Assembly: GCA_921293015.1 (NCBI GenBank)
Contig: OV121086.1
Coordinates: 34,595,194-34,659,193 of the forward strand
Direction of reading: 5' to 3'
Length of the DNA stretch: 64,000 nucleotides
From: Phorcus lineatus
Lineage: Eukaryota; Mollusca; Gastropoda; Trochida; Trochidae
The notes beneath the pieces were generated by a model. It searched no databases and was not told where the DNA came from. It was given only the letters and a program-made list of their open reading frames with translations. A program made the translations under genes and the position numbers. Every line of letters starts with the position of its first letter. Within the stretch, counting starts at the first letter, position 1. Below, in pieces: positions 18,458 to 56,389 of the stretch.

Positions 18458-18459
18458 TA

Positions 18460-19105
18460 TAAATTTCGATCACTTATCTTTCCCTTCATTAGATGATGTA
18501 ATAAACTATAATACTGATTCATTATAGGTACTAAAACAATCTGAATAACGATCCTCGTTCATTGATCATTAAGTAATGGACATTCTTTGACATTTAGAAA
18601 ACTTAATATTTTCAAAATTCAAACATAGTACATTCAAAATGTAACCTAGTGTTTCTTGTTTACATCTTTTATACTTTTTTTATTTAATCAGAAAAGGATT
18701 ACATGATACTTTTTAGATTGAAGGAGTTTTTAATCATAATGAGGTAGGTACTGACATCTTGAACGTGGAAAAAGAGAGAAGCTAAAAGAAAATGGAAATT
18801 TCTAAAATTAGAAAAGTATTATCTATATTTTGTTCCTCATTGAGCAACAATACCAAAAATTACAGAAAGTTAAATTGATAAAAAAAAGATATATAAATTT
18901 TCATGTTTCTAACTTTCTTGGTAATACCAAATATGCCTAGTTTTGATAAGAAAAAAATGATGATATATATTTCGAAATTTGAAATAATTTTTCTTTGTAG
19001 GTCAAAATGTCTTTAAAAAAAGTTTAAACTGTGATGAAATAAGATTTAAGCAAGCCATTTCTAAACTAAATGGAACAGGCAATTTGAAATTTTAAATGAA
19101 AAAAA
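18460..19105. other. AT-rich spacer before the satellite
   Basis: No gene or clear repeat recognised. The right part may contain satellite remnants too decayed to align by eye. Confidence 0.45.
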
Positions 19106-19109
19106 ATAC

Positions 19110-19498
19110 AGTTAAATCCTGTAAAATGACTAGCAAAATGTGACAATCAATTCAGAATTTTAAAAAACCCATTAAAGCCGAGAAAAAACTTATTCAAATG
19201 CTTTTTGTAAAAATATATACATATAGAAATATTTTTGATTGTGAAGTAAGATATGGATTTCAATACAACCGAATGAATTCCTGCTAAATGATTGTCTCGA
19301 TGTGCCAATCAATTTAGAAAACGATATTATTTCAATTTCAAGCCAAAAGTGAATTTAATACATTTTTGAAAAATAGTATTTAAAAAGATTATGAAGATGT
19401 TTTTGAATTATGGAAATAGTTTTGTCAAGATAAGTTCAAAGCCCAACTAAAAGAGAATTTGGAAATTTTAAAATGGAAATGGAAAATTTTGAATATTT
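19110..19498. repeat. Decayed left edge of the satellite
   Basis: A weak monomer remnant lies near 19110-19215 (ATCCTGTAAAATGACTAGC against the core TTCCTGCTAAATGATTGTC). A better one spans 19262-19430 (GAATGAATTCCTGCTAAATG, CCAATCAATTTAGAAAACG) with an internal deletion. Divergence rises away from the array core. Confidence 0.75.
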
Positions 19499-20424
19499 TT
19501 GATGAGTTTAAACATAGATGTGTCTTGTCAGTATATTATTGAGAATATGACATTGAAAAAATTGAATCCGCACAAAGAAATAGATCTGAACATTTTAGAT
19601 TTACACAATAAACGGAATGAATTCCTGCTAAATGATTGTCGAGATGTGCCAAACAATTTAGAAAATGATGTTATTTCAAATTCAAGCCAAAAGTGAATTT
19701 ATTAGCTTTTTGAGAAATAGTATTTAAAAAGATTATGAAGATGTTTTTGAATTATTGAGTTCGAAAAAGATTTCAATACATTTGAGTCCAGATGGACTAT
19801 TACATGTTTAATGAAATATAGATCAGTTTTGGTTCGGCTTCAGAATTGTCTTAGTTTTCTAAACTTCGACAGCATCTCTATAATGTGTCAAGTTTAGTCA
19901 AGATAAGTTTGAAGCCGAACCAAAAGAAAATTACAAAATTCATCATAGAATATGAAATTGGAGAAATTTGATATATTAAATCCAAAATTCCGAAAGAGAA
20001 ATTTGATACTCTAAATAGTTTTGTCAAGATAAGTTCAAAGCCCAACTAAAAGAGAATTTGGAAATTTTAAAATGGAAATGGAAAATTTTGAATATTTTTG
20101 ATGAGTTTAAACATAGATGTGTCTTGTCAGTATATTATTGAGAATATGACATTGACAAAATTGAATCCGCACAAAGAAATAGATCTGAACATTTTAGATT
20201 TACACAATAAACGGAATGAATTCCTGCTAAATGATTGTCGAGATGTGCCAAACAATTTAGAAAATGATGTTATTTCAAATTCAAGCCAAAAGTGAATTTA
20301 TTAGCTTTTTGAGAAATAGTATTTAAAAAGATTATGAAGATGTTTTTGAATTATTGAGTTCGAAAAAGATTTCAATACATTTGAGTCCAGATGGACTATT
20401 ACATGTTTAATGAAATATAGATCA

Positions 20425-20554
20425 GTTTTGGTTCGGCTTCAGAATTGTCTTAGTTTTCTAAACTTCGACAGCATCTCTATAATGTGTCAAGTTTAGTCAA
20501 GTTTAGTCAAGATAAGTTTGAAGCCGAACCAAAAGAAAATTACAAAATTCATCA
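20425..20554. repeat. 130-bp palindromic module of the long monomer (example copy)
   Basis: Bounded by ATCA on each side. Inside, TTTTGGTTCGGCTTCA near the left is the exact reverse complement of TGAAGCCGAACCAAAA towards the right. A smaller inner hairpin (CTAAACTTCGACA with TGTCAAGTTTAG) surrounds the decamer repeat. Its absence from short monomers makes it either an inserted MITE-like piece or a deletion between the ATCA repeats. Confidence 0.7.
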
Positions 20555-20709
20555 TAGAATATGAAATTGGAGAAATTTGATATATTAAATCCAAAATTCC
20601 GAAAGAGAAATTTGATACTCTAAATAGTTTTGTCAAGATAAGTTCAAAGCCCAACTAAAAGAGAATTTGGAAATTTTAAAATGGAAATGGAAAATTTTGA
20701 ATATTTTTG

Positions 20710-20904
20710 ATGAGTTTAAACATAGATGTGTCTTGTCAGTATATTATTGAGAATATGACATTGAAAAAATTGAATCCGCACAAAGAAATAGATCTGAACA
20801 TTTTAGATTTACACAATAAACGGAATGAATTCCTGCTAAATGATTGTCGAGATGTGCCAAACAATTTAGAAAATGATGTTATTTCAAATTCAAGCCAAAA
20901 GTGA
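20710..20904 (+). other. Representative 64-codon frame inside the satellite monomer
   Basis: The ATG frame (MSLNIDVSCQ...NSSQK) is open in all 60 core monomers and stops just before the T-run. Variant residues among copies include Arg/Pro, Ile/Phe, Asn/Ile, Phe/Leu, Lys/Thr, Ile/Val, Val/Met, Gln/Arg and Lys/Glu, while I saw only two silent variants (CTG/TTG Leu, CCG/CCA Pro). Both right-edge copies have lost the frame. This looks like a frame kept by homogenisation, not by selection. No domain is recognised. Confidence 0.3.
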
Positions 20905-23900
20905 ATTTATTAGCTTTTTGAGAAATAGTATTTAAAAAGATTATGAAGATGTTTTTGAATTATTGAGTTCGAAAAAGATTTCAATACATTTGAGTCCAGA
21001 TGGACTATTACATGTTTAATGAAATATAGATCAGTTTTGGTTCGGCTTCAGAATTGTCTTAGTTTTCTAAACTTCGACAGCATCTCTATAATGTGTCAAG
21101 TTTAGTCAAGTTTAGTCAAGATAAGTTTGAAGCCGAACCAAAAGAAAATTACAAAATTCATCATAGAATATGAAATTGGAGAAATTTGATATATTAAATC
21201 CAAAATTCCGAAAGAGAAATTTGATACTCTAAATAGTTTTGTCAAGATAAGTTCAAAGCCCAACTAAAAGAGAATTTGGAAATTTTAAAATGGAAATGGA
21301 AAATTTTGAATATTTTTGATGAGTTTAAACATAGATGTGTCTTGTCAGTATATTATTGAGAATATGACATTGAAAAAATTGAATCCGCACAAAGAAATAG
21401 ATCTGAACATTTTAGATTTACACAATAAACCGAATGAATTCCTGCTAAATGATTGTCGAGATGTGCCAAACAATTTAGAAAATGATGTTATTTCAAATTC
21501 AAGCCAAAAGTGAATTTATTACCTTTTTGAGAAATAGTATTTAAAAAGATTATGAAGATGTTTTTGAATTATTGAGTTCGAAAAAGATTTCAATACATTT
21601 GAGTCCAGATGGACTATTACATGTTTAATGAAATATAGATCAGTTTTGGTTCGGCTTCAGAATTGTCTTAGTTTTCTAAACTTCGACAGCATCTCTATAA
21701 TGTGTCAAGTTTAGTCAAGTTTAGTCAAGATAAGTTTGAAGCCGAACCAAAAGAAAATTACAAAATTCATCATAGAATATGAAATTGGAGAAATTTGATA
21801 TATTAAATCCAAAATTCCGAAAGAGAAATTTGATACTCTAAATAGTTTTGTCAAGATAAGTTCAAAGCCCAACTAAAAGAGAATTTGGAAATTTTAAAAT
21901 GGAAATGGAAAATTTTGAATATTTTTGATGAGTTTAAACATAGATGTGTCTTGTCAGTATATTATTGAGAATATGACATTGAAAAAATTGAATCCGCACA
22001 AAGAAATAGATCTGAACATTTTAGATTTACACAATAAACCGAATGAATTCCTGCTAAATGATTGTCGAGATGTGCCAAACAATTTAGAAAATGATGTTAT
22101 TTCAAATTCAAGCCAAAAGTGAATTTATTAGCTTTTTGAGAAATAGTATTTAAAAAGATTATGAAGATGTTTTTGAATTATTGAGTTCGAAAAAGATTTC
22201 AATATATTTGAGTCCAGATGGACTATTACATGTTTAATGAAATATAGATCAGTTTTGGTTCGGCTTCAGAATTGTCTTAGTTTTCTAAACTTCGACAGCA
22301 TCTCTATAATGTGTCAAGTTTAGTCAAGTTTAGTCAAGATAAGTTTGAAGCCGAACCAAAAGAAAATTACAAAATTCATCATAGAATATGAAATTGGAGA
22401 AATTTGATATATTAAATCCAAAATTCCGAAAGAGAAATTTGATACTCTAAATAGTTTTGTCAAGATAAGTTCAAAGCCCGACTAAAAGAGAATTTGGAAA
22501 TTTTAAAATGGAAATGGAAAATTTTGAATATTTTTGATGAGTTTAAACATAGATGTGTCTTGTCAGTATATTATTGAGAATATGACATTGAAAAAATTGA
22601 ATCCGCACAAAGAAGTAGATCTGAACATTTTAGATTTACACAATAAACCAAATGAATTCCTGCTAAATGATTGTCGAGATGTGCCAAACAATTTAGAAAA
22701 TGATGTTATTTCAAATTCAAGCCAAAAGTGAATTTATTACCTTTTTGAGAAATAGTATTTAAAAAGATTATGAAGATGTTTTTGAATTATTGAGTTCGAA
22801 AAAGATTTCAATACATTTGAGTCCAGATGGACTATTACATGTTTAATGAAATATAGATCAGTTTTGGTTCGGCTTCAGAATTGTCTTAGTTTTCTAAACT
22901 TCGACAGCATCTCTATAATGTGTCAAGTTTAGTCAAGTTTAGTCAAGATAAGTTTGAAGCCGAACCAAAAGAAAATTACAAAATTCATCATAGAATATGA
23001 AATTGGAGAAATTTGATATATTAAATCTAAAATTCCGAAAGAGAAATTTGATACTCTAAATAGTTTTGTCAAGATAAGTTCAAAGCCCAACTAAAAGAGA
23101 ATTTGGAAATTTTAAAATGGAAATGGAAAATTTTTAATATTTTTGATGAGTTTAAACATAGATGTGTCTTGTCAGTATATTATTGAGAATATGACATTGA
23201 AAAAATTGAATCCGCACAAAGAAATAGATCTGAACATTTTAGATTTACACAATAAACGGAATGAATTCCTGCTAAATGATTGTCGAGATGTGCCAAACAA
23301 TTTAGAAAATGATGTTATTTCAAATTCAAGCCAAAAGTGAATTTATTAGCTTTTTGAGAAATAGTATTTAAAAAGATTATGAAGATGTTTTTGAATTATT
23401 GAGTTCGAAAAAGATTTCAATACATTTGAGTCCAGATGGACTATTACATGTTTAATGAAATATAGATCAGTTTTGGTTCGGCTTCAGAATTGTCTTAGTT
23501 TTCTAAACTTCGACAGCATCTCTATAATGTGTCAAGTTTAGTCAAGATAAGTTTGAAGCCGAACCAAAAGAAAATTACAAAATTCATCATAGAATATGAA
23601 ATTGGAGAAATTTGATATATTAAATCCAAAATTCCGAAAGAGAAATTTGATACTCTAAATAGTTTTGTCAAGATAAGTTCAAAGCCCGACTAAAAGAGAA
23701 TTTGGAAATTTTAAAATGGAAATGGAAAATTTTGAATATTTTTGATGAGTTTAAACATAGATGTGTCTTGTCAGTATATTATTGAGAATATGACATTGAA
23801 AAAATTGAATCCGCACAAAGAAATAGATCTGAACATTTTAGATTTACACAATAAACCGAATGAATTCCTGCTAAATGATTGTCGAGATGTGCCAAACAAT

Positions 23901-24348
23901 TTAGAAAATGATGTTATTTCAAATTCAAGCCAAAAGTGAATTTATTAGCTTTGAGAAATAGTATTTAAAAAGATTATGAAGATGTTTTTGAATTATTGAG
24001 TTCGAAAAAGATTTCAATACATTTGAGTCCAGATGGACTATTACATGTTTAATGAAATATAGATCAGTTTTGGTTCGGCTTCAGAATTGTCTTAGTTTTC
24101 TAAACTTCGACAGCATCTCTATAATGTGTCAAGTTTAGTCAAGTTTAGTCAAGATAAGTTTGAAGCCGAACCAAAAGAAAATTACAAAATTCATCATAGA
24201 ATATGAAATTGGAGAAATTTGATATATTAAATCCAAAATTCCGAAAGAGAAATTTGATACTCTAAATAGTTTTGTCAAGATAAGTTCAAAGCCCGACTAA
24301 AAGAGAATTTGGAAATTTTAAAATGGAAATGGAAAATTTTGAATATTT

Positions 24349-27300
24349 TTGATGAGTTTAAACATAGATGTGTCTTGTCAGTATATTTTTGAGAATATGA
24401 CATTGAAAAAATTGAATCCGCACAAAGAAATAGATTTGAACATTTTAGATTTACACAATAAACCGAATGAATTCCTGCTAAATGATTGTCGAGATGTGCC
24501 AAACAATTTAGAAAATGATGTTATTTCAAATTCAAGCCAAAAGTGAATTTATTACCTTTTTGAGAAATAGTATTTAAAAAGATTATGAAGATGTTTTTGA
24601 ATTATTGAGTTCGAAAAAGATTTCAATACATTTGAGTCCAGATGGACTATTACATGTTTAATGAAATATAGATCAGTTTTGGTTCGGCTTCAGAATTGTC
24701 TTAGTTTTCTAAACTTCGACAGCATCTCTATAATGTGTCAAGTTTAGTCAAGTTTAGTCAAGATAAGTTTGAAGCCGAACCAAAAGAAAATTACAAAATT
24801 CATCATAGAATATGAAATTGGAGAAATTTGATATATTAAATCCAAAATTCCGAAAGAGAAATTTGATACTCTAAATAGTTTTGTCAAGATAAGTTCAAAG
24901 CCCAACTAAAAGAGAATTTGGAAATTTTAAAATGGAAATGGAAAATTTTGAATATTTTTGATGAGTTTAAACATAGATGTGTCTTGTCAGTATATTATTG
25001 AGAATATGACATTGAAAAAATTGAATCCGCACAAAGAAATAGATCTGAACATTTTAGATTTACACAATAAACGGAATGAATTCCTGCTAAATGATTGTCG
25101 AGATGTGCCAAACAATTTAGAAAATGATGTTATTTCAAATTCAAGCCAAAAGTGAATTTATTACCTTTTTGAGAAATAGTATTTAAAAAGATTATGAAGA
25201 TGTTTTTGAATTATTGAGTTCGAAAAAGATTTCAATACATTTGAGTCCAGATGGACTATTACATGTTTAATGAAATATAGATCAGTTTTGGTTCGGCTTC
25301 AGAATTGTCTTAGTTTTCTAAACTTCGACAGCATCTCTATAATGTGTCAAGTTTAGTCAAGATAAGTTTGAAGCCGAACCAAAAGAAAATTACAAAATTC
25401 ATCATAGAATATGAAATTGGAGAAATTTGATATATTAAATCCAAAATTCCGAAAGAGAAATTTGATACTCTAAATAGTTTTGTCAAGATAAGTTCAAAGC
25501 CCAACTAAAAGAGAATTTGGAAATTTTAAAATGGAAATGGAAAATTTTGAATATTTTTGATGAGTTTAAACATAGATGTGTCTTGTCAGTATATTATTGA
25601 GAATATGACATTGAAAAAATTGAATCCGCACAAAGAAATAGATCTGAACATTTTAGATTTACACAATAAACGGAATGAATTCCTGCTAAATGATTGTCGA
25701 GATGTGCCAAACAATTTAGAAAATGATGTTATTTCAAATTCAAGCCAAAAGTGAATTTATTACCTTTTTGAGAAATAGTATTTAAAAAGATTATGAAGAT
25801 GTTTTTGAATTATTGAGTTCGAAAAAGATTTCAATATATTTGAGTCCAGATGGACTATTACATGTTTAATGAAATATAGATCAGTTTTGGTTCGGCTTCA
25901 GAATTGTCTTAGTTTTCTAAACTTCGACAGCATCTCTATAATGTGTCAAGTTTAGTCAAGTTTAGTCAAGATAAGTTTGAAGCCGAACCAAAAGAAAATT
26001 ACAAAATTCATCATAGAATATGAAATTGGAGAAATTTGATACATTAAATCCAAAATTCCGAAAGAGAAATTTGATACTCTAAATAGTTTTGTCAAGATAA
26101 GTTCAAAGCCCAACTAAAAGAGAATTTGGAAATTTTAAAATGGAAATGGAAAATTTTGAATATTTTTGATGAGTTTAAACATAGATGTGTCTTGTCAGTA
26201 TATTATTGAGAATATGACATTGAAAAAATTGAATCCGCACAAAGAAATAGATCTGAACATTTTAGATTTACACAATAAACGGAATGAATTACTGCTAAAT
26301 GATTGTCGAGATGTGCCAAACAATTTAGAAAATGATGTTATTTCAAATTCAAGCCAAAAGTGAATTTATTAGCTTTTTGAGAAATAGTATTTAAAAAGAT
26401 TATGAAGATGTTTTTGAATTATTGAGTTCGAAAAAGATTTCAATACATTTGAGTCCAGATGGACTATTACATGTTTAATGAAATATAGATCAGTTTTGGT
26501 TCGGCTTCAGAATTGTCTTAGTTTTCTAAACTTCGACAGCATCTCTATAATGTGTCAAGTTTAGTCAAGTTTAGTCAAGATAAGTTTGAAGCCGAACCAA
26601 AAGAAAATTACAAAATTCATCATAGAATATGAAATTGGAGAAATTTGATATATTAAATCTAAAATTCCGAAAGAGAAATTTGATACTCTAAATAGTTTTG
26701 TCAAGATAAGTTCAAAGCCCAACTAAAAGAGAATTTGGAAATTTTAAAATGGAAATGGAAAATTTTGAATATTTTTGATGAGTTTAAACATAGATGTGTC
26801 TTGTCAGTATATTTTTGAGAATATGACATTGAAAAAATTGAATCCGCACAAAGAAATAGATTTGATCATTTTAGATTTACACAATAAACCGAATGAATTC
26901 CTGCTAAATGATTGTCGAGATGTGCCAAACAATTTAGAAAATGATGTTATTTCAAATTCAAGCCAAAAGTGAATTTATTACCTTTTTGAGAAATAGTATT
27001 TAAAAAGATTATGAAGATGTTTTTGAATTATTGAGTTCGAAAAAGATTTCAATACATTTGAGTCCAGATGGACTATTACATGTTTAATGAAATATAGATC
27101 AGTTTTGGTTCGGCTTCAGAATTGTCTTAGTTTTCTAAACTTCGACAGCATCTCTATAATGTGTCAAGTTTAGTCAAGTTTAGTCAAGATAAGTTTGAAG
27201 CCGAACCAAAAGAAAATTACAAAATTCATCATAGAATATGAAATTGGAGAAATTTGATATATTAAATCCAAAATTCCGAAAGAGAAATTTGATACTCTAA

Positions 27301-28589
27301 ATAGTTTTGTCAAGATAAGTTCAAAGCCCAACTAAAAGAGAATTTGGAAATTTTAAAATGGAAATGGAAAATTTTGAATATTTTTGATGAGTTTAAACAT
27401 AGATGTGTCTTGTCAGTATATTATTGAGAATATGACATTGAAAAAATTGAATCCGCACAAAGAAATAGATCTGAACATTTTAGATTTACACAATAAACCG
27501 AATGAATTCCTGCTAAATGATTGTCGAGATGTGCCAAACAATTTAGAAAATGATGTTATTTCAAATTCAAGCCAAAAGTGAATTTATTACCTTTTTGAGA
27601 AATAGTATTTAAAAAGATTATGAAGATGTTTTTGAATTATTGAGTTCGAAAAAGATTTCAATACATTTGAGTCCAGATGGACTATTACATGTTTAATGAA
27701 ATATAGATCAGTTTTGGTTCGGCTTCAGAATTGTCTTAGTTTTCTAAACTTCGACAGCATCTCTATAATGTGTCAAGTTTAGTCAAGATAAGTTTGAAGC
27801 CGAACCAAAAGAAAATTACAAAATTCATCATAGAATATGAAATTGGAGAAATTTGATATATTAAATCCAAAATTCCGAAAGAGAAATTTGATACTCTAAA
27901 TAGTTTTGTCAAGATAAGTTCAAAGCCCGACTAAAAGAGAATTTGGAAATTTTAAAATGGAAATGGAAAATTTTGAATATTTTTGATGAGTTTAAACATA
28001 GATGTGTCTTGTCAGTATATTATTGAGAATATGACATTGAAAAAATTGAATCCGCACAAAGAAATAGATCTGAACATTTTAGATTTACACAATAAACCGA
28101 ATGAATTCCTGCTAAATGATTGTCGAGATGTGCCAAACAATTTAGAAAATGATGTTATTTCAAATTCAAGCCAAAAGTGAATTTATTAGCTTTGAGAAAT
28201 AGTATTTAAAAAGATTATGAAGATGTTTTTGAATTATTGAGTTCGAAAAAGATTTCAATACATTTGAGTCCAGATGGACTATTACATGTTTAATGAAATA
28301 TAGATCAGTTTTGGTTCGGCTTCAGAATTGTCTTAGTTTTCTAAACTTCGACAGCATCTCTATAATGTGTCAAGTTTAGTCAAGTTTAGTCAAGATAAGT
28401 TTGAAGCCGAACCAAAAGAAAATTACAAAATTCATCATAGAATATGAAATTGGAGAAATTTGATATATTAAATCCAAAATTCCGAAAGAGAAATTTGATA
28501 CTCTAAATAGTTTTGTCAAGATAAGTTCAAAGCCCGACTAAAAGAGAATTTGGAAATTTTAAAATGGAAATGGAAAATTTTGAATATTT
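24349..28589. repeat. Higher-order block H1, seven monomers, 4241 bp
   Basis: Monomer lengths in order are 609, 599, 609, 609, 609, 599 and 607. Marker variants in order include a TTTTTGAG start unit, the CAATATATTTG and GATACATTAAAT changes in the third unit, GAATTACTGC in the fourth and GATTTGATCATT in the fifth. The same order and lengths recur at 31012-35252. Confidence 0.9.
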
Positions 28590-31011
28590 TTGATGAGTTT
28601 AAACATAGATGTGTCTTGTCAGTATATTTTTGAGAATATGACATTGAAAAAATTGAATCCGCACAAAGAAATAGATTTGAACATTTTAGATTTACACAAT
28701 AAACCGAATGAATTCCTGCTAAATGATTGTCGAGATGTGCCAAACAATTTAGAAAATGATGTTATTTCAAATTCAAGCCAAAAGTGAATTTATTACCTTT
28801 TTGAGAAATAGTATTTAAAAAGATTATGAAGATGTTTTTGAATTATTGAGTTCGAAAAAGATTTCAATACATTTGAGTCCAGATGGACTATTACATGTTT
28901 AATGAAATATAGATCAGTTTTGGTTCGGCTTCAGAATTGTCTTAGTTTTCTAAACTTCGACAGCATCTCTATAATGTGTCAAGTTTAGTCAAGTTTAGTC
29001 AAGATAAGTTTGAAGCCGAACCAAAAGAAAATTACAAAATTCATCATAGAATATGAAATTGGAGAAATTTGATATATTAAATCCAAAATTCCGAAAGAGA
29101 AATTTGATACTCTAAATAGTTTTGTCAAGATAAGTTCAAAGCCCAACTAAAAGAGAATTTGGAAATTTTAAAATGGAAATGGAAAATTTTGAATATTTTT
29201 GATGAGTTTAAACATAGATGTGTCTTGTCAGTATATTATTGAGAATATGACATTGAAAAAATTGAATCCGCACAAAGAAATAGATCTGAACATTTTAGAT
29301 TTACACAATAAACGGAATGAATTCCTGCTAAATGATTGTCGAGATGTGCCAAACAATTTAGAAAATGATGTTATTTCAAATTCAAGCCAAAAGTGAATTT
29401 ATTACCTTTTTGAGAAATAGTATTTAAAAAGATTATGAAGATGTTTTTGAATTATTGAGTTCGAAAAAGATTTCAATACATTTGAGTCCAGATGGACTAT
29501 TACATGTTTAATGAAATATAGATCAGTTTTGGTTCGGCTTCAGAATTGTCTTAGTTTTCTAAACTTCGACAGCATCTCTATAATGTGTCAAGTTTAGTCA
29601 AGATAAGTTTGAAGCCGAACCAAAAGAAAATTACAAAATTCATCATAGAATATGAAATTGGAGAAATTTGATATATTAAATCCAAAATTCCGAAAGAGAA
29701 ATTTGATACTCTAAATAGTTTTGTCAAGATAAGTTCAAAGCCCGACTAAAAGAGAATTTGGAAATTTTAAAATGGAAATGGAAAATTTTGAATATTTTTG
29801 ATGAGTTTAAACATAGATGTGTCTTGTCAGTATATTATTGAGAATATGACATTGAAAAAATTGAATCCGCACAAAGAAATAGATCTGAACATTTTAGATT
29901 TACACAATAAACCGAATGAATTCCTGCTAAATGATTGTCGAGATGTGCCAAACAATTTAGAAAATGATGTTATTTCAAATTCAAGCCAAAAGTGAATTTA
30001 TTAGCTTTGAGAAATAGTATTTAAAAAGATTATGAAGATGTTTTTGAATTATTGAGTTCGAAAAAGATTTCAATACATTTGAGTCCAGATGGACTATTAC
30101 ATGTTTAATGAAATATAGATCAGTTTTGGTTCGGCTTCAGAATTGTCTTAGTTTTCTAAACTTCGACAGCATCTCTATAATGTGTCAAGTTTAGTCAAGT
30201 TTAGTCAAGATAAGTTTGAAGCCGAACCAAAAGAAAATTACAAAATTCATCATAGAATATGAAATTGGAGAAATTTGATATATTAAATCCAAAATTCCGA
30301 AAGAGAAATTTGATACTCTAAATAGTTTTGTCAAGATAAGTTCAAAGCCCGACTAAAAGAGAATTTGGAAATTTTAAAATGGAAATGGAAAATTTTGAAT
30401 ATTTTTGATGAGTTTAAACATAGATGTGTCTTGTCAGTATATTATTGAGAATATGACATTGAAAAAATTGAATCCGCACAAAGAAATAGATCTGAACATT
30501 TTAGATTTACACAATAAACCGAATGAATTCCTGCTAAATGATTGTCGAGATGTGCCAAACAATTTAGAAAATGATGTTATTTCAAATTCAAGCCAAAAGT
30601 GAATTTATTAGCTTTGAGAAATAGTATTTAAAAAGATTATGAAGATGTTTTTGAATTATTGAGTTCGAAAAAGATTTCAATACATTTGAGTCCAGATGGA
30701 CTATTACATGTTTAATGAAATATAGATCAGTTTTGGTTCGGCTTCAGAATTGTCTTAGTTTTCTAAACTTCGACAGCATCTCTATAATGTGTCAAGTTTA
30801 GTCAAGTTTAGTCAAGATAAGTTTGAAGCCGAACCAAAAGAAAATTACAAAATTCATCATAGAATATGAAATTGGAGAAATTTGATATATTAAATCCAAA
30901 ATTCCGAAAGAGAAATTTGATACTCTAAATAGTTTTGTCAAGATAAGTTCAAAGCCCGACTAAAAGAGAATTTGGAAATTTTAAAATGGAAATGGAAAAT
31001 TTTGAATATTT

Positions 31012-43100: not shown

Positions 43101-43133
43101 TTTTAAAATGGAAATGGAAAATTTTGAATATTT

Positions 43134-45301: not shown

Positions 45302-48300
45302 TTGATGAGTTTAAACATAGATGTGTCTTGTCAGTATATTATTGAGAATATGACATTGAAAAAATTGAATCCGCACAAAGAAATAGATCTGAACATTTTA
45401 GATTTACACAATAAACGGAATGAATTCCTGCTAAATGATTGTCGAGATGTGCCAAACAATTTAGAAAATGATGTTATTTCAAATTCAAGCCAAAAGTGAA
45501 TTTATTACCTTTTTGAGAAATAGTATTTAAAAAGATTATGAAGATGTTTTTGAATTATTGAGTTCGAAAAAGATTTCAATACATTTGAGTCCAGATGGAC
45601 TATTACATGTTTAATGAAATATAGATCAGTTTTGGTTCGGCTTCAGAATTGTCTTAGTTTTCTAAACTTCGACAGCATCTCTATAATGTGTCAAGTTTAG
45701 TCAAGTTTAGTCAAGATACGTTTGAAGCCGAACCAAAAGAAAATTACAAAATTCATCATAGAATATGAAATTGGAGAAATTTGATATATTAAATCCAAAA
45801 TTCCGAAAGAGAAATTTGATACTCTAAATAGTTTTGTCAAGATAAGTTCAAAGCCCAACTAAAAGAGAATTTGGAAATTTTAAAATGGAAATGGAAAATT
45901 TTGAATATTTTTGATGAGTTTAAACATAGATGTGTCTTGTCAGTATATTATTGAGAATATGACATTGAAAAAATTGAATCCGCACAAAGAAATAGATCTG
46001 AACATTTTAGATTTACACAATAAACGGAATGAATTCCTGCTAAATGATTGTCGAGATATGCCAAACAATTTAGAAAATGATGTTATTTCAAATTCAAGCC
46101 AAAAGTGAATTTATTAGCTTTTTGAGAAATAGTATTTAAAAAGATTATGAAGATGTTTTTGAATTATTGAGTTCGAAAAAGATTTCAATACATTTGAGTC
46201 CAGATGGACTATTACATGTTTAATGAAATATAGATCAGTTTTGGTTCGGCTTCAGAATTGTCTTAGTTTTCTAAACTTCGACAGCATCTCTATAATGTGT
46301 CAAGTTTAGTCAAGTTTAGTCAAGATAAGTTTGAAGCCGAACCAAAAGAAAATTACAAAATTCATCATAGAATATGAAATTGGAGAAATTTGATATATTA
46401 AATCCAAAATTCCGAAAGAGAAATTTGATACTCTAAATAGTTTTGTCAAGATAAGTTCAAAGCCCAACTAAAAGAGAATTTGGAAATTTAAAAATGGAAA
46501 TGGAAAATTTTGAATATTTTTGATGAGTTTAAACATAGATGTGTCTTGTCAGTATATTATTGAGAATATGACATTGAAAAAATTGAATCCGCACAAAGAA
46601 ATAGATCTGAACATTTTAGATTTACACAATAAACGGAATGAATTCCTGCTAAATGATTGTCGAGATGTGCCAAACAATTTAGAAAATGATGTTATTTCAA
46701 ATTCAAGCCAAAAGTGAATTTATTAGCTTTTTGAGAAATAGTATTTAAAAAGATTATGAAGATGTTTTTGAATTATTGAGTTCGAAAAAGATTTCAATAC
46801 ATTTGAGTCCAGATGGACTATTACATGTTTAATGAAATATAGATCAGTTTTGGTTCGGCTTCAGAATTGTCTTAGTTTTCTAAACTTCGACAGCATCTCT
46901 ATAATGTGTCAAGTTTAGTCAAGTTTAGTCAAGATAAGTTTGAAGCCGAACCAAAAGAAAATTACAAAATTCATCATAGAATATGAAATTGGAGAAATTT
47001 GATATATTAAATCCAAAATTCCGAAAGAGAAATTTGATACTCTAAATAGTTTTGTCAAGATAAGTTCAAAGCCCAACTAAAAGAGAATTTGGAAATTTTA
47101 AAATGGAAATGGAAAATTTTGAATATTTTTGATGAGTTTAAACATAGATGTGTCTTGTCAGTATATTTTTGAGAATATGACATTGACAAAATTGAATCCG
47201 CACAAAGAAATAGATCTGAACATTTTAGATTTACACAATAAACGGAATGAATTCCTGCTAAATGATTGTCGAGATGTGCCAAACAATTTAGAAAATGATG
47301 TTATTTCAAATTCAAGCCAAAAGTGAATTTATTACCTTTTTGAGAAATAGTATTTAAAAAGATTATGAAGATGTTTTTGAATTATTGAGTTCGAAAAAGA
47401 TTTCAATACATTTGAGTCCAGATGGACTATTACATGTTTAATGAAATATAGATCAGTTTTGGTTCGGCTTCAGAATTGTCTTTGTTTTCTAAACTTCGAC
47501 AGCATCTCTATAATGTGTCAAGTTTAGTCAAGTTTAGTCAAGATAAGTTTGAAGCCGAACCAAAAGAAAATTACAAAATTCATCATAGAATATGAAATTG
47601 GAGAAATTTGATATATTAAATCCAAAATTCCGAAAGAGAAATTTGATACTCTAAATAGTTTTGTCAAGATAAGTTCAAAGCCCAACTAAAAGAGAATTTG
47701 GAAATTTTAAAATGGAAATGGAAAATTTTGAATATTTTTGATGAGTTTAAACATAGATGTGTCTTGTCAGTATATTATTGAGAATATGACATTGAAAAAA
47801 TTGAATCCGCACAAAGAAATAGATCTGAACATTTTAGATTTACACAATAAACGGAATGAATTCCTGCTAAATGATTGTCGAGATGTGCCAAACAATTTAG
47901 AAAATGATGTTATTTCAAATTCAAGCCAAAAGTGAATTTATTACCTTTTTGAGAAATAGTATTTAAAAAGATTATGAAGATGTTTTTGAATTATTGAGTT
48001 CGAAAAAGATTTCAATACATTTGAGTCCAGATGGACTATTACATGTTTAATGAAATATAGATCAGTTTTGGTTCGGCTTCAGAATTGTCTTAGTTTTCTA
48101 AACTTCGACAGCATCTCTATAATGTGTCAAGTTTAGTCAAGTTTAGTCAAGATACGTTTGAAGCCGAACCAAAAGAAAATTACAAAATTCATCATAGAAT
48201 ATGAAATTGGAGAAATTTGATATATTAAATCCAAAATTCCGAAAGAGAAATTTGATACTCTAAATAGTTTTGTCAAGATAAGTTCAAAGCCCAACTAAAA

Positions 48301-49564
48301 GAGAATTTGGAAATTTTAAAATGGAAATGGAAAATTTTGAATATTTTTGATGAGTTTAAACATAGATGTGTCTTGTCAGTATATTATTGAGAATATGACA
48401 TTGAAAAAATTGAATCCGCACAAAGAAATAGATCTGAACATTTTAGATTTACACAATAAACGGAATGAATTCCTGCTAAATGATTGTCGAGATGTGCCAA
48501 ACAATTTAGAAAATGATGTTATTTCAAATTCAAGCCAAAAGTGAATTTATTAGCTTTTTGAGAAATAGTATTTAAAAAGATTATGAAGATGTTTTTGAAT
48601 TATTGAGTTCGAAAAAGATTTCAATACATTTGAGTCCAGATGGACTATTACATGTTTAATGAAATATAGATCAGTTTTGGTTCGGCTTCAGAATTGTCTT
48701 AGTTTTCTAAACTTCGACAGCATCTCTATAATGTGTCAAGTTTAGTCAAGTTTAGTCAAGATAAGTTTGAAGCCGAACCAAAAGAAAATTACAAAATTCA
48801 TCATAGAATATGAAATTGGAGAAATTTGATATATTAAATCCAAAATTCCGAAAGAGAAATTTGATACTCTAAATAGTTTTGTCAAGATAAGTTCAAAGCC
48901 CAACTAAAAGAGAATTTGGAAATTTTAAAATGGAAATGGAAAATTTTGAATATTTTTGATGAGTTTAAACATAGATGTGTCTTGTCAGTATATTTTTGAG
49001 AATATGACATTGACAAAATTGAATCCGCACAAAGAAATAGATCTGAACATTTTAGATTTACACAATAAACGGAATGAATTCCTGCTAAATGATTGTCGAG
49101 ATGTGCCAAACAATTTAGAAAATGATGTTATTTCAAATTCAAGCCAAAAGTGAATTTATTACCTTTTTGAGAAATAGTATTTAAAAAGATTATGAAGATG
49201 TTTTTGAATTATTGAGTTCGAAAAAGATTTCAATACATTTGAGTCCAGATGGACTATTACATGTTTAATGAAATATAGATCAGTTTTGGTTCGGCTTCAG
49301 AATTGTCTTTGTTTTCTAAACTTCGACAGCATCTCTATAATGTGTCAAGTTTAGTCAAGTTTAGTCAAGATAAGTTTGAAGCCGAACCAAAAGAAAATTA
49401 CAAAATTCATCATAGAATATGAAATTGGAGAAATTTGATATATTAAATCCAAAATTCCGAAAGAGAAATTTGATACTCTAAATAGTTTTGTCAAGATAAG
49501 TTCAAAGCCCAACTAAAAGAGAATTTGGAAATTTTAAAATGGAAATGGAAAATTTTGAATATTT

Positions 49565-50039
49565 TTGATGAGTTTAAACATAGATGTGTCTTGTCAGTAT
49601 ATTATTGAGAATATGACATTGAAAAAATTGAATCCGCACAAAGAAATAGATCTGAACATTTTAGATTTACACAATAAACCGAATGAATTCCTGCTAAATG
49701 ATTGTCGAGATGTGCCAAACAATTTAGAAAATGATGTTATTTCAAATTCAAGCCAAAAGTGAATTTAATACATTTTTGAAAAATAGTATTTAAAAAGATT
49801 ATGAAGATGTTTTTGAATTATTGAGTTCGAAAAAGATTTTAATGCGTTTGAGTCCAGATGGACTATTGTTTAATGAAATATAGATCATAGAATATGAAAT
49901 TGGAGAAATTTGATATATTAAATCCAAAATTCCGAAAGAGAAATTTGATACTCTAAATAGTTTTGTCAAGATAAGTTCAAAGCCCAACTAAAAGAGAATT
50001 TGGAAATTTTAAAATGGAAATGGAAAATTTTGAATATTT
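49565..50039. repeat. 475-bp short monomer
   Basis: Lacks the 130-bp palindromic module, reading ATAGATCATAGAATATG across the site, and lacks a nearby ACAT. Other short monomers begin at 43134, 44218 and 51259. The two earliest read ATAGATAATAG at the junction instead. Confidence 0.9.
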
Positions 50040-53000
50040 TTGATGAGTTTAAACATAGATGTGTCTTGTCAGTATATTATTGAGAATATGACATTGAAAA
50101 AATTGAATCCGCACAAAGAAATAGATCTGAACATTTTAGATTTACACAATAAACCGAATGAATTCCTGCTAAATGATTGTCGAGATGTGCCAAACAATTT
50201 AGAAAATGATGTTATTTCAAATTCAAGCCAAAAGTGAATTTATTAGCTTTTTGAGAAATAGTATTTAAAAAGATTATGAAGATGTTTTTGAATTATTGAG
50301 TTCGAAAAAGATTTCAATACATTTGAGTCCAGATGGACTATTACATGTTTAATGAAAAATAGATCAGTTTTGGTTCGGCTTCAGAATTGTCTTAGTTTTC
50401 TAAACTTCGACAGCATCTCTATAATGTGTCAAGTTTAGTCAAGTTTAGTCAAGATAAGTTTGAAGCCGAACCAAAAGAAAATTACAAAATTCATCATAGA
50501 ATATGAAATTGGAGAAATTTGATATATTAAATCCAAAATTCCGAAAGAGAAATTTGATACTCTAAATAGTTTTGTCAAGATAAGTTCAAAGCCCAACTAA
50601 AAGAGAATTTGGAAATTTTAAAATGGAAATAGGAAAATTTTGAATATTTTTGATGAGTTTAAACATAGATGTGTCTTGTCAGTATATTATTGAGAATATG
50701 ACATTGAAAAAATTGAATCCGCACAAAGAAATAGATCTGAACATTTTAGATTTACACAATAAACGGAATGAATTCCTGCTAAATGATTGTCGAGATGTGC
50801 CAAACAATTTAGAAAATGATGTTATTTCAAATTCAAGCCAAAAGTGAATTTATTACCTTTTTGAGAAATAGTATTTAAAAAGATTATGAAGATGTTTTTG
50901 AATTATTGAGTTCGAAAAAGATTTCAATACATTTGAGTCCAGATGGACTATTACATGTTTAATGAAATATAGATCAGTTTTGGTTCGGCTTCAGAATTGT
51001 CTTAGTTTTCTAAACTTCGACAGCATCTCTATAATGTGTCAAGTTTAGTCAAGTTTAGTCAAGATAAGTTTGAAGCCGAACCAAAAGAAAATTACAAAAT
51101 TCATCATAGAATATGAAATTGGAGAAATTTGATATATTAAATCCAAAATTCCGAAAGAGAAATTTGATACTCTAAATAGTTTTGTCAAGATAAGTTCAAA
51201 GCCCAACTAAAAGAGAATTTGGAAATTTTAAAATGGAAATGGAAAATTTTGAATATTTTTGATGAGTTTAAACATAGATGTGTCTTGTCAGTATATTTTT
51301 GAGAATATGACATTGAAAAAATTGAATCCGCACAAAGAAATAGATCTGAACATTTTAGATTTACACAATAAACGGAATGAATTCCTGCTAAATGATTGTC
51401 GAGATGTGCCAAACAATTTAGAAAATGATGTTATTTCAAATTCAAGCCAAAAGTGAATTTATTAGCTTTTTGAGAAATAGTATTTAAAAAGATTATGAAG
51501 ATGTTTTTGAATTATTGAGTTCGAAAAAGATTTTAATGCGTTTGAGTCCAGATGGACTATTGTTTAATGAAATATAGATCATAGAATATGAAATTGGAGA
51601 AATTTGATATATTAAATCCAAAATTCCGAAAGAGAAATTTGATACTCTAAATAGTTTTGTCAAGATAAGTTCAAAGCCCAACTAAAAGAGAATTTGGAAA
51701 TTTTAAAATGGAAATGGAAAATTTTGAATATTTTTGATGAGTTTAAACATAGATGTGTCTTGTCAGTATATTATTGAGAATATGACATTGAAAAAATTGA
51801 ATCCGCACAAAGAAATAGATCTGAACATTTTAGATTTACACAATAAACGGAATGAATTCCTGCTAAATGATTGTCGAGATGTGCCAAACAATTTAGAAAA
51901 TGATGTTATTTCAAATTCAAGCCAAAAGTGAATTTATTACCTTTTTGAGAAATAGTATTTAAAAAGATTATGAAGATGTTTTTGAATTATTGAGTTCGAA
52001 AAAGATTTCAATACATTTGAGTCCAGATGGACTATTACATGTTTAATGAAATATAGATCAGTTTTGGTTCGGCTTCAGAATTGTCTTTGTTTTCTAAACT
52101 TCGACAGCATCTCTATAATGTGTCAAGTTTAGTCAAGTTTAGTCAAGATAAGTTTGAAGCCGAACCAAAAGAAAATTACAAAATTCATCATAGAATATGA
52201 AATTGGAGAAATTTGATATATTAAATCCAAAATTCCGAAAGAGAAATTTGATACTCTAAATAGTTTTGTCAAGATAAGTTTAAAGCCCAACTAAAAGAGA
52301 ATTTGGAAATTTTAAAATGGAAATGGAAAATTTTGAATATTTTTGATGAGTTTAAACATAGATGTGTCTTGTCAGTATATTATTGAGAATATGACATTGA
52401 AAAAATTGAATCCGCACAAAGAAATAGATCTGAACATTTTAGATTTACACAATAAACCGAATGAATTCCTGCTAAATGATTGTCGAGATGTGCCAAACAA
52501 TTTAGAAAATGATGTTATTTCAAATTCAAGCCAAAAGTGAATTTATTAGCTTTTTGAGAAATAGTATTTAAAAAGATTATGAAGATGTTTTTGAATTATT
52601 GAGTTCGAAAAAGATTTCAATACATTTGAGTCCAGATGGACTATTACATGTTTAATGAAATATAGATCAGTTTTGGTTCGGCTTCAGAATTGTCTTTGTT
52701 TTCTAAACTTCGACAGCATCTCTATAATGTGTCAAGTTTAGTCAAGTTTAGTCAAGATAAGTTTGAAGCCGAACCAAAAGAAAATTACAAAATTCATCAT
52801 AGAATATGAAATTGGAGAAATTTGATATATTAAATCCAAAATTCCGAAAGAGAAATTTGATACTCTAAATAGTTTTGTCAAGATAAGTTTAAAGCCCAAC
52901 TAAAAGAGAATTTGGAAATTTTAAAATGGAAATGGAAAATTTTGAATATTTTTGATGAGTTTAAACATAGATGTGTCTTGTCAGTATATTATTGAGAATA

Positions 53001-55344
53001 TGACATTGAAAAAATTGAATCCGCACAAAGAAATAGATCTGAACATTTTAGATTTACACAATAAACGGAATGAATTCCTGCTAAATGATTGTCGAGATGT
53101 GCCAAACAATTTAGAAAATGATGTTATTTCAAATTCAAGCCAAAAGTGAATTTATTACCTTTTTGAGAAATAGTATTTAAAAAGATTATGAAGATGTTTT
53201 TGAATTATTGAGTTCGAAAAAGATTTCAATACATTTGAGTCCAGATGGACTCTTACATGTTTAATGAAAAATAGATCAGTTTTGGTTCGGCTTCAGAATT
53301 GTCTTAGTTTTCTAAACTTCGACAGCATCTCTATAATGTGTCAAGTTTAGTCAAGTTTAGTCAAGATAAGTTTGAAGCCGAACCAAAAGAAAATTACAAA
53401 ATTCATCATAGAATATGAAATTGGAGAAATTTGATATATTAAATCCAAAATTCCGAAAGAGAAATTTGATACTCTAAATAGTTTTGTCAAGATAAGTTCA
53501 AAGCCCAACTAAAAGAGAATTTGGAAATTTTAAAATGGAAATAGGAAAATTTTGAATATTTTTGATGAGTTTAAACATAGATGTGTCTTGTCAGTATATT
53601 ATTGAGAATATGACATTGAAAAAATTGAATCCGCACAAAGAAATAGATCTGAACATTTTAGATTTACACAATAAACGGAATGAATTCCTGCTAAATGATT
53701 GTCGAGATGTGCCAAACAATTTAGAAAATGATGTTATTTCAAATTCAAGCCAAAAGTGAATTTATTACCTTTTTGAGAAATAGTATTTAAAAAGATTATG
53801 AAGATGTTTTTGAATTATTGAGTTCGAAAAAGATTTCAATACATTTGAGTCCAGATGGACTCTTACATGTTTAATGAAAAATAGATCAGTTTTGGTTCGG
53901 CTTCAGAATTGTCTTAGTTTTCTAAACTTCGACAGCATCTCTATAATGTGTCAAGTTTAGTCAAGTTTAGTCAAGATAAGTTTGAAGCCGAACCAAAAGA
54001 AAATTACAAAATTCATCATAGAATATGAAATTGGAGAAATTTGATATATTAAATCCAAAATTCCGAAAGAGAAATTTGATACTCTAAATAGTTTTGTCAA
54101 GATAAGTTCAAAGCCCAACTAAAAGAGAATTTGGAAATTTTAAAATGGAAATAGGAAAATTTTGAATATTTTTGATGAGTTTAAACATAGATGTGTCTTG
54201 TCAGTATATTATTGAGAATATGACATTGAAAAAATTGAATCCGCACAAAGAAATAGATCTGAACATTTTAGATTTACACAATAAACGGAATGAATTCCTG
54301 CTAAATGATTGTCGAGATGTGCCAAACAATTTAGAAAATGATGTTATTTCAAATTCAAGCCAAAAGTGAATTTATTACCTTTTTGAGAAATAGTATTTAA
54401 AAAGATTAAGAAGATGTTTTTGAATTATTGAGTTCGAAAAAGATTTCAATACATTTGAGTCCAGATGGACTATTACATGTTTAATGAAATATAGATCAGT
54501 TTTGGTTCGGCTTCAGAATTGTCTTAGTTTTCTAAACTTCGACAGCATCTCTATAATGTGTCAAGTTTAGTCAAGATAAGTTTGAAGCCGAACCAAAAGA
54601 AAATTACAAAATTCATCATAGAATATGAAATTGGAGAAATTTGATATATTAAATCCAAAATTCCGAAAGAGAAATTTGATACTCTAAATAGTTTTGTCAA
54701 GATAAGTTCAAAGCCCAACTAAAAGAGAATTTGGAAATTTTAAAATGGAAATGGAAAATTTTGAATATTTTTGATGAGTTTAAACATAGATGTGTCTTGT
54801 CAGTATATTATTGAGAATATGACATTGAAAAAATTGAATCCGCACAAAGAAATAGATCTGAACATTTTAGATTTACACAATAAACGGAATGAATTCCTGC
54901 TAAATGATTGTCGAGATGTGCCAAACAATTTAGAAAATGATGTTATTTCAAATTCAAGCCGAAAGTGAATTTATTACCTTTTTGAGAAATAGTATTTAAA
55001 AAGATTATGAAGATGTTTTTGAATTATTGAGTTCGAAAAAGATTTCAATACATTTGAGTCCAGATGGACTATTACATGTTTAATGAAATATAGATCAGTT
55101 TTGGTTCGGCTTCAGAATTGTCTTAGTTTTCTAAACTTCGACAGCATCTCTATAATGTGTCAAGTTTAGTCAAGATAAGTTTGAAGCCGAACCAAAAGAA
55201 AATTACAAAATTCATCATAGAATATGAAATTGGAGAAATTTGATATATTAAATCTAAAATTCCGAAAGAGAAATTTGATATTCTAAATAGTTTTGTCAAG
55301 ATAAGTTCAAAGCCCAACTAAAAGAGAATTTGGAAATTTTAAAA

Positions 55345-56385
55345 TAGAATATGAAACTCTCAGGGGGAATGGGTTTTATTTTAAATCCAAAAGGTAAAGG
55401 AAATGGGAAATTTTGAATTTTTTGATGAGTTTAAACATAGATGTATCTTGTCAGTATATTATTGAGAATATGACATTGAAAAAATTGAATCCGCACAAAG
55501 AAATAGATCTGAACAAGTTTAGATTAAGACAATAAACCGAATGAATTCCTGCTAAATGATTGTTGAGATGTGCTAAACAATTTAGAAAATGATGTTATTT
55601 CAAATTCAAGCCAAAAGTGAATTTAATACATTTTTGAAAAATAGTATTTAAAAAGATTATGAAGATGTTTTTGAATTATTGAGTTCGAAAAAGATTTTAA
55701 TACGTTTGAGTCCAGATGGACTATTGTTTAATGAAATATAGATCATAGAATATGAAATTGGAGAAATTTGATATATTAAATCCAAAATTCCGAAAGAGAA
55801 ATTTGATACTCTAAATAGTTTTGTCAAGATAAGTTCAAAGCCCAACTAAAAGAGAATTTGGAAATTTTAAAACAGAATAATGAAACTCTCAGGGGGAATG
55901 GGTTTTTTTTTAAAATCCAAAAGGTAAAGGAAATGGGAAATTTTGAATTTTTTAATGAGTTTAAACATAGATGTATCTTGTCAGTATATTATTGAGAATA
56001 TGACATTGAAAAAATTGAATCCGCACAAAGAAATAGATCTGAACATTTTAGATTAAGACAATAAAACGAATGAATTCCTGCTAAATGATTGTTGAGATGT
56101 GCCAAACAATTTAGAAAATGATGTTATTTCAAATTCAAGCCAAAAGTGAATTTAATACATTTTTGAAAAATAGCATTTAAAAAGATTATGAAGATGTTTT
56201 TGAATTATGGAGTTTGAATCAATACATTTGAGTCCAGATGGACTATGGTTTAATGAAATATAGATCAGTTTTGGTTCTATATTTCGGCTTCAGAATTGTC
56301 TTAAATTTCTAAACTTCGACAGCATCACTATAATGTGTCAAGTTTAGTCAAGATAAGCCGAAACAAAAAGATAATTTTAAAAAGT
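55345..56385. repeat. Decayed right edge of the satellite
   Basis: Two diverged monomers carry an extra segment (GAAACTCTCAGGGGGAATGG) at about 55350 and 55880 that core monomers lack. The first is a short-type monomer. In both, the core frame is broken: a 1-bp insertion leads to an early stop in the first and TTAGATTAA ends the second. The last piece (56215-56385) carries a diverged palindromic module with an extra TATATT in its left arm. Confidence 0.85.
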
Positions 56386-56389
56386 CTCA

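What the first reader, a model, noticed from the sequence alone, without database searches (positions are those of the whole stretch)
19245..56380. 37-kb satellite with a 609-bp monomer and complex higher-order structure
Sixty near-identical monomers sit head to tail, and a small set of length and base variants recurs in fixed order. That is the signature of higher-order repeats, seen best in centromeric satellites. The monomer is not one I recognise, and the array may be a centromeric, pericentromeric or knob-like block.
Basis: partly seen in the sequence, partly recalled or inferred. Interest (0 to 1): 0.72.

Follow-up and report, generated by a model that had tools for sequence, protein, structure and literature searches.

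The report
Interstitial satellite inside a duplicated block
In a sea snail, the thick topshell, this 37-kb stretch of about sixty near-identical repeats looks not like a centromere but like one part of a larger block copied to nine places in the genome, where the same repeat ranges from about two copies to about sixty, so the birth and growth of a satellite may be read off a single genome.

Summary
Sixty head-to-tail segments (modal 609 bp) fill 19,756-55,681, and seven monomer types recur in fixed order. Two adjacent 4.84-kb higher-order copies differ by one 10-bp indel and no substitution. The strict order is confined to about 25.2-41.6 kb.

The centromere reading does not hold. The array is one module of a larger block. 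In order: an AT-rich repeat region, a 22-bp repeat, a unique spacer, the 609/645-bp array, a 28-bp minisatellite, a 457-520-bp repeat array, and shared unique DNA. The block has nine copies on six of 18 chromosomes (chr 4, 6, 8, 9, 13, 18). Three chromosomes carry two copies 5-7 Mb apart. The satellite gives about 244 pattern hits, about 0.02% of the genome.

Six arrays were read, two only in part. Each is homogenised locally (96-99% within a locus, 90-96% between). Right-edge monomers keep the older, 53-bp-longer form. The most divergent copy, on chr4, has about 1.5-2 degenerate monomers where read. Best reading: an interstitial satellite grown independently in duplicated blocks by unequal exchange. 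How the block itself moved is unresolved.

The parts
19266..56394 (+). 609-bp satellite array; 60 anchor-to-anchor segments 19756-55681 plus degraded edge monomers
25215..31877 (+). higher-order repeat copy 1 (11 monomers, 6663 bp)
31878..36715 (+). higher-order repeat copy 2 (8 monomers, 4838 bp)
36716..41563 (+). higher-order repeat copy 3 (8 monomers, 4848 bp), no substitutions relative to copy 2
55028..56207 (+). right-edge relics of the older monomer form: they carry the 53-bp segment that the core lacks and that the other arrays and the chr4 monomer have. Counting gap columns the first is 96.3% identical to the chr8 consensus and 88.1% to its own core; without gap columns the two are alike (about 97.4% and 97.7%, my arithmetic), so the older form is shown by the segment and not by substitutions
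   Evidence: sister to the core clade in the tree
21035..21143 (+). example of the imperfect palindrome (about 100-nt hairpin) in the near-full-length monomers; the 472-bp type lacks it
   Evidence: (fold z -6.8 to -8.8 against 300 dinucleotide shuffles in the three rows tested)
13320..18178 (+). AT-rich, internally repetitive left module of the block
   Evidence: self-similarity; shared with other copies
18344..18454 (+). 22-bp tandem repeat, 5 copies, block module (absent from the chr9 26.5-Mb copy)
18455..19265 (+). unique spacer of the block, one copy per block where present; used to count blocks
   Evidence: 8 hits, all 8 candidates scored
56395..59076 (+). 28-bp minisatellite (96 copies), block module next to the array
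59077..60009 (.). spacer between the 28-bp and 457-bp modules; a segment of it (about 59260-59632) recurs at the far end of the 457-bp array
60010..64000 (+). 457-520-bp tandem array with 30-bp subrepeats; runs past the window to about C11:34,693,003 (window coordinate about 97,810)
10072..13319 (+). left shoulder of the block, shared in part with other copies; contains a MITE-like element at 10807-11284

Best explanation
The array is an interstitial, locus-specific satellite embedded in a duplicated chromosomal block of the topshell Phorcus lineatus. SHOWN: nine dispersed copies of the block exist, and in the copies read the modules that are present keep the same order around the array. SHOWN: the six arrays read differ in length and largely form their own sequence groups. 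SHOWN: the window's core is a 609-bp form, while its right-edge monomers still carry a 53-bp segment found in the other five arrays read and in the chr4 monomer. INFERRED: a roughly 645-bp segment became a short tandem pair in the ancestral block. The block was then copied within and between chromosomes. At each landing site unequal crossing-over and gene conversion between sister copies lengthened and homogenised the array. At the window locus a deletion form (609) took over the core recently and left older monomers at the right edge, and exchanges out of register by 8 or 11 monomers produced the higher-order repeats. No function is needed to explain it. The strong hairpin in each monomer may make the sequence prone to breakage and replication slippage and so help the arrays grow, but that is speculation.
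For: Species and chromosome: C1 is 79,430,111 bp and C13 49,790,511 bp, exactly the longest scaffold and the scaffold N50 of xgPhoLine1.1; C11 58,700,416 fits chr6, and C13, C15, C25, C41 and C7 fit chr8, 9, 13, 18 and 4. Block copies: the spacer finds 8 loci (8 of 8 candidates scored). The right flank finds the same 8 loci plus C15:26.58 Mb, whose array was read, i.e. nine (28 of 28 candidates scored; 11 of 30 rows are the nine loci, the other 19 are a dispersed element of about 100-145 bp). Shared order; four of six arrays read are followed by the 28-bp array then 457-type repeats, a fifth by the 28-bp array where its fetch ends (457-type at a probe further on), and the sixth runs past the fetched stretch. 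Local homogenisation: mean within-locus identity 0.958-0.993, between-locus 0.897-0.962, gap columns left out, 141 near-complete monomers. Tree of 145 tips: three of six loci monophyletic; the window core plus its left-edge monomer form one clade (0.966), sister to the right-edge pair (0.932). A second HOR at the other chr6 copy: lag-8 identity 0.969 against 0.925-0.955 at the other lags 1-13. Little-expanded copy: chr4 shows one degenerate monomer, a partial one and relics before the 28-bp array, and 5.9 kb from spacer to right flank against 35-93 kb in the others.
Against: The outer limits of the block were not reached on the right (main and chr8 are still 95.6% alike at the end of the fetch) and are ragged on the left, so the way it was copied is open. 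The chr4 state could be a contraction and not the starting state; no outgroup species was available, and only 1.9 kb of its 5.9 kb was read. In the tree the chr6b and chr9b monomers are not monophyletic (one chr6b monomer falls with chr9b), and two joining nodes are weak (0.34, 0.45). Clear multi-monomer periods were seen at two of the six arrays only; chr8 and chr9a show none, chr9b only near-identical neighbours, and chr13 a mix of 650- and 298-bp units that I did not resolve. Local homogenisation by exchange is inferred from sequence pattern, not observed. The chr9 26.5-Mb copy lacks the 22-bp repeat and the spacer, and the chr13 4.3-Mb copy has only 203 of 811 spacer bases. The 28-bp and 457-bp modules were not counted genome-wide (server unreachable), so whether they also occur outside the block is unknown.
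Confidence: 0.8

Rival explanations
1. Centromeric or pericentromeric satellite: the array is kinetochore or pericentromeric heterochromatin DNA.
For: Higher-order repeats, AT-richness and a dyad in each near-full-length monomer; position 0.59 along chr6 would suit a metacentric chromosome.
Against: The block is on only 6 of 18 chromosomes in the assembly, and chr6, 9 and 13 carry two sites 5.2-7.4 Mb apart; about 244 pattern hits in 958 Mb; chr13 copies lie at about 9% and 25% and the chr18 copy at about 87% of the chromosome; an Hsp20 gene pair is 16-25 kb away.
Confidence: 0.05
2. Giant mobile element: the whole block, with its tandem arrays inside, is a very large transposon (Helitron/Helentron-like or other) that moved as one unit.
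For: Nine copies on both strands on six chromosomes with the same module order; Helentron-derived elements carry satellite-like arrays in the oyster Crassostrea gigas (PMC7492417, passages read).
Against: Left homology starts at different points (window 5547 for the chr6 pair; 10072, 10284, 11583, 12514 and 12548 elsewhere). Homology goes on at least 4 kb past the last array on the right without an end. Apart from the separate hAT insertion at 62021, I saw no transposase, Rep or helicase ORF, but only 7, 2 and 5 peptides were scanned with Pfam and no search was made with such families.
Confidence: 0.15
3. Intronic or non-coding transcript locus: the block is a transcribed gene or long RNA family with repeat-filled introns.
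For: Minus-strand open stretch of about 66 aa with splice-like ends (...GACCAAG|GTGAGT) in the shared right flank, open in main and chr8; a related segment lies at window 59260-59632; 30-bp subrepeats in the 457-bp units.
Against: The stretch has an in-frame stop in the chr6b copy. Weak Pfam hit only (Ufd2P_core, E=0.05, below cut-off). A genome search with that family finds 17 matches, all on C29 and C2, none in a block. No RNA evidence was available.
Confidence: 0.08
4. Assembly artefact: higher-order order or copy number produced by the assembler.
For: HOR copies 2 and 3 are identical apart from 10 bp over 4.8 kb, a hard case for assembly.
Against: Published assembly from 32-fold HiFi plus Hi-C, QV 56.5 (PMC10444997, part 1 of 3 read); graded edge monomers; unique flanks; arrays of the same family at five other loci read. 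Exact copy number may still be off.
Confidence: 0.05

Closest known systems
Cg_HINE / Helentron-carried satellite-like arrays of the oyster Crassostrea gigas (PMC7492417; abstract and passages seen)
   Same: Mollusc; tandem arrays in fixed orientation between constant flanks; exceptionally two kinds of array in consecutive order; dispersed in assembled sequence.
   Different: Those flanks are 50-100 bp with subterminal inverted repeats and a 3' palindrome. Here the shared DNA is tens of kb with at least four consecutive repeat modules, nine copies, and no common left end.
PcH-Sat of the limpet Patella caerulea (PMC11121367; abstract and outline seen)
   Same: Gastropod AT-rich satellite with 91.6-99.8% monomer identity.
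   Different: 179-bp monomer, about 10% of the genome, mainly pericentromeric by FISH, SINE-derived. Ours is 609/645 bp, about 0.02% of the genome, in nine interstitial blocks.
Euchromatic satellites of Drosophila such as 1.688 and Rsp-like (PMC4280042, PMC7642928; search listing only; details recalled)
   Same: Interstitial arrays at several loci, each with its own homogenised variant.
   Different: Those arrays are many and short. Here whole multi-array blocks are shared, and one array shows long HORs.
Alpha-satellite higher-order repeats of primate centromeres (recalled; only search listings seen)
   Same: Multi-monomer higher-order units, near-identical copies, older divergent monomers at the edges.
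   Different: Not on every chromosome, not megabase-scale, two sites on some chromosomes, monomer about 3.5 times longer.

Membership tests
Centromeric higher-order satellite | Tandem monomers in a higher-order order | tested here: met
Centromeric higher-order satellite | Present on all or most chromosomes, one main site per chromosome | tested here: not met
   nine block copies on 6 of 18 chromosomes; chr6, chr9 and chr13 have two each; the 24-mer listing (first 100 of 244 places) shows no further chromosome; unassembled DNA cannot be judged
Centromeric higher-order satellite | High copy number, long arrays | tested here: not met
   244 hits at up to 3 mismatches in 24 bases, reversed-pattern control 0; arrays read in full 10-37 kb, chr9a over 33 kb by probes
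Centromeric higher-order satellite | CENP-A chromatin | not testable with these tools
   no chromatin data
Satellite DNA family with concerted evolution | Higher identity within than between loci | tested here: met
   0.958-0.993 within, 0.897-0.962 between (means over 141 monomers, gap columns left out; partial and short units dropped)
Segmental duplication / low-copy repeat | Stretches over 1 kb at 90% identity or more at two or more places | tested here: met
   right flank 1161-bp query, 93-98% at 7 of 8 other loci (four over the full length, three over 906-1015 bases), chr4 86-89%; left 3.2-kb piece 95% at chr6b
Helentron/HINE element carrying a satellite | Short left and right flanks (50-100 bp) that define the element ends | tested here: not met
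   shared DNA goes on for kb on both sides; left limits differ between copies
Helentron/HINE element carrying a satellite | Subterminal inverted repeats and 3' palindrome | not tested
   no element end was identified to test
Helentron/HINE element carrying a satellite | Rep/helicase of an autonomous partner | not tested
   no search with that family was made

The most novel reading that the evidence does not exclude
A satellite life series inside one genome: nine copies of one seed block, from about two degenerate monomers on chr4 through about 15-19 (chr6b, chr8, chr9b) to about 60 on chr6, each array grown and homogenised on its own, with higher-order repeats arising independently at least twice. 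If the chr4 copy is the starting state, every step from duplicated segment to higher-order satellite is preserved with its flanks, and growth can be compared locus by locus.
Probability: 0.4. Interest if true: 0.6.

Novelty: new variant of a known kind. Interest (0 to 1): 0.42.

Why it matters
Higher-order repeats are often taken as a mark of centromeres (recalled). Here they arise in a small interstitial array with no sign of being a centromere, and a second copy of the same block shows its own 8-monomer period, which supports the view that they follow from unequal exchange alone. The nine blocks share flanks, and the arrays read differ in length from about two to about sixty monomers, so satellite birth, homogenisation and HOR formation can be compared between loci of one genome. 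Some block copies lie inverted to each other several Mb apart on one chromosome, possible substrates for inversions.

Tried and rejected
Centromere or knob satellite: rejected on distribution and copy number. Free-standing satellite: rejected because the same neighbours flank it at the other loci. Hsp20 genes as part of the repeated unit: rejected; the protein search (26 of 26 candidates scored) finds the tandem pair here, one full relative at C7:41.16 Mb (6.5 Mb from the chr4 block) and weak hits on C37 and C39. Ufd2/UBE4 exon in the right flank: not supported (E=0.05; family search finds only C29 and C2). Rfam: no match at gathering thresholds. Selection on the hairpin: 40 pairs over 51 distinct rows, 96.3% of 2036 cells paired, no change on both sides, 75 broken cells; arms diverge less than the rest between loci (2.5% against 6.0%), but some 50-column stretches outside the hairpin are also low (3.3-3.4%), so this is no evidence for function. 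TRF gave no 609-bp row because its longest period is 500. 28-bp array as coding: open frames run in several frames; the longest gave no Pfam match above its cut-off; not pursued.

Not done because the genome server did not answer: genome-wide counts of the 28-bp and 457-bp modules, and a test whether C11:34.699 Mb still belongs to the block.

The transcript rival went from 0.10 to 0.08 for the chr6b stop; no other odds were changed.
Full report
Where it is. The window lies at C11:34,595,194-34,659,193 of a genome of 957,807,699 bases in 74 contigs. [quoted passage not shown] first of three parts of the text read). The mitochondrial record (19.1 kb) fits C74 (19,115), and C11 (58,700,416) fits chromosome 6. 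The paper gives 78 scaffolds and 957,853,961 bp, so the copy held here differs slightly from the one described. C13, C15, C25, C41 and C7 fit chromosomes 8, 9, 13, 18 and 4 by length.

The observation. Self-comparison peaks at 609 bp. Sixty anchor-to-anchor segments fill 19,756-55,681, with 36 distinct sequences. Seven monomer types recur in fixed order between 25.2 and 41.6 kb. Runs of four types recur 11 times against a mean of 0.0015 in 2000 shuffles. HOR copies 2 and 3 differ by one 10-bp indel in 4848 columns. Near-identical pairs are commonest at lags of 8 and 11 monomers (22% and 25% of pairs). The right third has 472-bp deletion variants and no strict period. Both ends hold degraded monomers.

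The monomer. It holds an internal duplication (146-232 and 272-351, 74% alike) and an imperfect palindrome at 72-180. The palindrome folds as a hairpin far more stable than shuffles: z -6.8 to -8.8 in the three rows tested. Rows from all six loci read fold alike, with no compensatory changes. No Rfam family reaches its gathering score anywhere in the window.

Genome-wide. A conserved 24-mer gives 244 matches at up to three mismatches, with none for the reversed control; only the first 100 places are listed, and 58 of the 83 exact ones are in this array. Other arrays were read at chr6 39.97 Mb, chr8 36.57 Mb, chr9 26.5 and 31.7 Mb (both in part), and chr13 4.3 Mb. Their near-complete monomers are about 632-664 bp; chr13 also has units of about 298 bp. 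At 0.64 kb each, 244 monomers are about 0.016% of the genome (my arithmetic; a lower bound).

The block. Flanks of these arrays are homologous to the window's flanks, in the same order and orientation. From left to right they are the AT-rich region, the 22-bp repeat, the spacer (at three arrays it ends in the same junction and the array starts at the same monomer phase), the array, the 28-bp minisatellite, and 457-520-bp repeats. The chr9 26.5-Mb copy lacks the 22-bp repeat and spacer. The 457-type array of the window copy runs to about C11:34,693,003. Past it, unique DNA stays 95-96% alike among the three copies read there (chr6 main, chr8, chr6b): to the end of the 4.0 kb compared between main and chr8, and of the 2.5 kb compared between main and chr6b (the chr8 copy lacks about 0.6 kb). 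The spacer query finds 8 places, with all 8 candidates scored. The right-flank query finds those 8 plus chr9 26.58 Mb, with all 28 candidates scored. So there are nine block copies: chr4 one, chr6 two, chr8 one, chr9 two, chr13 two, chr18 one. From spacer to the far end of the right-flank match is 81 kb in the window copy, 35-93 kb in seven others (chr9a measured from its array, since it lacks the spacer) and 5.9 kb on chr4.

Evolution. Mean identity is 0.993 within the window array, 0.958-0.983 within the other five, and 0.897-0.962 between loci (141 near-complete monomers, gap columns left out, partial and short units dropped). In a tree of 145 tips rooted on the chr4 monomer, three loci (chr8, chr9a, chr13) are monophyletic. 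The window core with its left-edge monomer forms a clade (0.966), and the two right-edge monomers are its sister (0.932). One chr6b monomer falls with chr9b and the other 15 form one group; two of the joining nodes are weak (0.34, 0.45). The right-edge monomers carry a 53-bp segment that the core lacks and that the other five arrays and the chr4 monomer have. With gap columns counted the first right-edge monomer is 96.3% identical to the chr8 consensus and 88.1% to its own core; without them the two are alike (about 97.4% and 97.7%, my arithmetic). So the segment, not substitutions, marks the edge as the older form, and the homogeneous 609-bp core as derived and recent. The second chr6 copy has its own 8-monomer period (lag-8 identity 0.969, two of nine pairs at 0.998 or more); chr8 and chr9a show no clear period, chr9b only near-identical neighbours, chr13 was not resolved. 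The chr4 copy, read over 1.9 kb, holds one degenerate monomer, a partial one and weak relics, then the 28-bp array. It is the most divergent copy (77% in the spacer, 86-89% in the right flank). It may be the unexpanded state, or a shrunken one.

Mechanism. Unequal exchange and conversion within each array explain length differences, local identity, HORs and an old edge. This is inferred. What copied the block is open. Left limits are ragged (window 5547 for the chr6 pair; 10072, 10284, 11583, 12514 and 12548 elsewhere), and some copies share further DNA to the left that the chr6 stretches compared do not match. That fits segmental duplication better than a transposon with fixed ends, but the right end was not reached.

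Against the centromere. Six of 18 chromosomes carry the block; chr6, chr9 and chr13 have two sites 5.4, 5.2 and 7.4 Mb apart; total content is low; an Hsp20 gene pair sits nearby. No centromere map was found: paper searches show no trochid study among the 20 of 2,150 and 6 of 5,639 papers listed. So this is distributional evidence only.

Print. Searches list no paper on this repeat or on Phorcus satellites among the rows shown (20 of 2,150; 15 of 636; 10 of 3,554; 12 of 14; 6 of 73; 6 of 5,639); most subscription journals are not held. Closest is the HINE work in oyster (PMC7492417, abstract and passages) and PcH-Sat in a limpet (PMC11121367, abstract and outline).

Noticed in passing
window 62021-63530: A 1510-bp hAT-type insertion inside the 457-bp array: 18-bp perfect terminal inverted repeats (TAGGGCTGAAACGGGTAC), 8-bp target-site duplication GTGAGCTA on both sides, BED zinc-finger ORF. 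The hAT label is my judgement from these features.
   Followed up: partly
window 10807-11284: A MITE-like element with 19-bp inverted ends (TTAAAGAGCCACTCCGTGA); 31 of the 48 matches listed for the left-shoulder query are copies of it on many contigs, with 13,835 first-look candidates of which 40 were scored. The chr13 4.3-Mb block lacks it and has about 229 bp of other DNA there.
   Followed up: partly
window 1495-2838 and L017 4678-6315: Tandem pair of Hsp20-type genes, each a single long open frame with an acidic linker. Pfam finds two HSP20 stretches in the first; the second was not scanned with Pfam but matches it at 52-65%. One further full relative at C7:41.16 Mb.
   Followed up: partly
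C11 34.6(+)/39.97(-), C15 26.5(+)/31.7(-), C25 4.3(-)/11.7(+): On three chromosomes two block copies lie 5.2-7.4 Mb apart in opposite orientation, possible substrates for inversions. The paper notes a possible heterozygous inversion at about 1-6.14 Mb of chr13, which contains one copy.
   Followed up: no
L082 about 629-865 (minus strand), 225-460 bases past the end of the 457-bp array; related segment at window 59260-59632: Minus-strand open stretch of about 66 aa with a splice-donor-like end, open in main and chr8, broken by a stop in chr6b; possible exon relic of an unknown transcript.
   Followed up: partly
window 4453-4595: A 143-bp near-perfect palindrome (93% self-complementary match) left of the block.
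   Followed up: no
reverse complement of L041 about 8066-8603; reverse complement of L087 1-205: An 18-bp minisatellite (ATGGTTCCAAAGCAGTTT) shared by the left sides of the chr13 4.3-Mb and chr18 blocks; no match to it in the chr6 stretches compared.
   Followed up: no
window 56395-59076: The 28-bp array has a longer period of about 1063 bp (lag identity 0.746).
   Followed up: no
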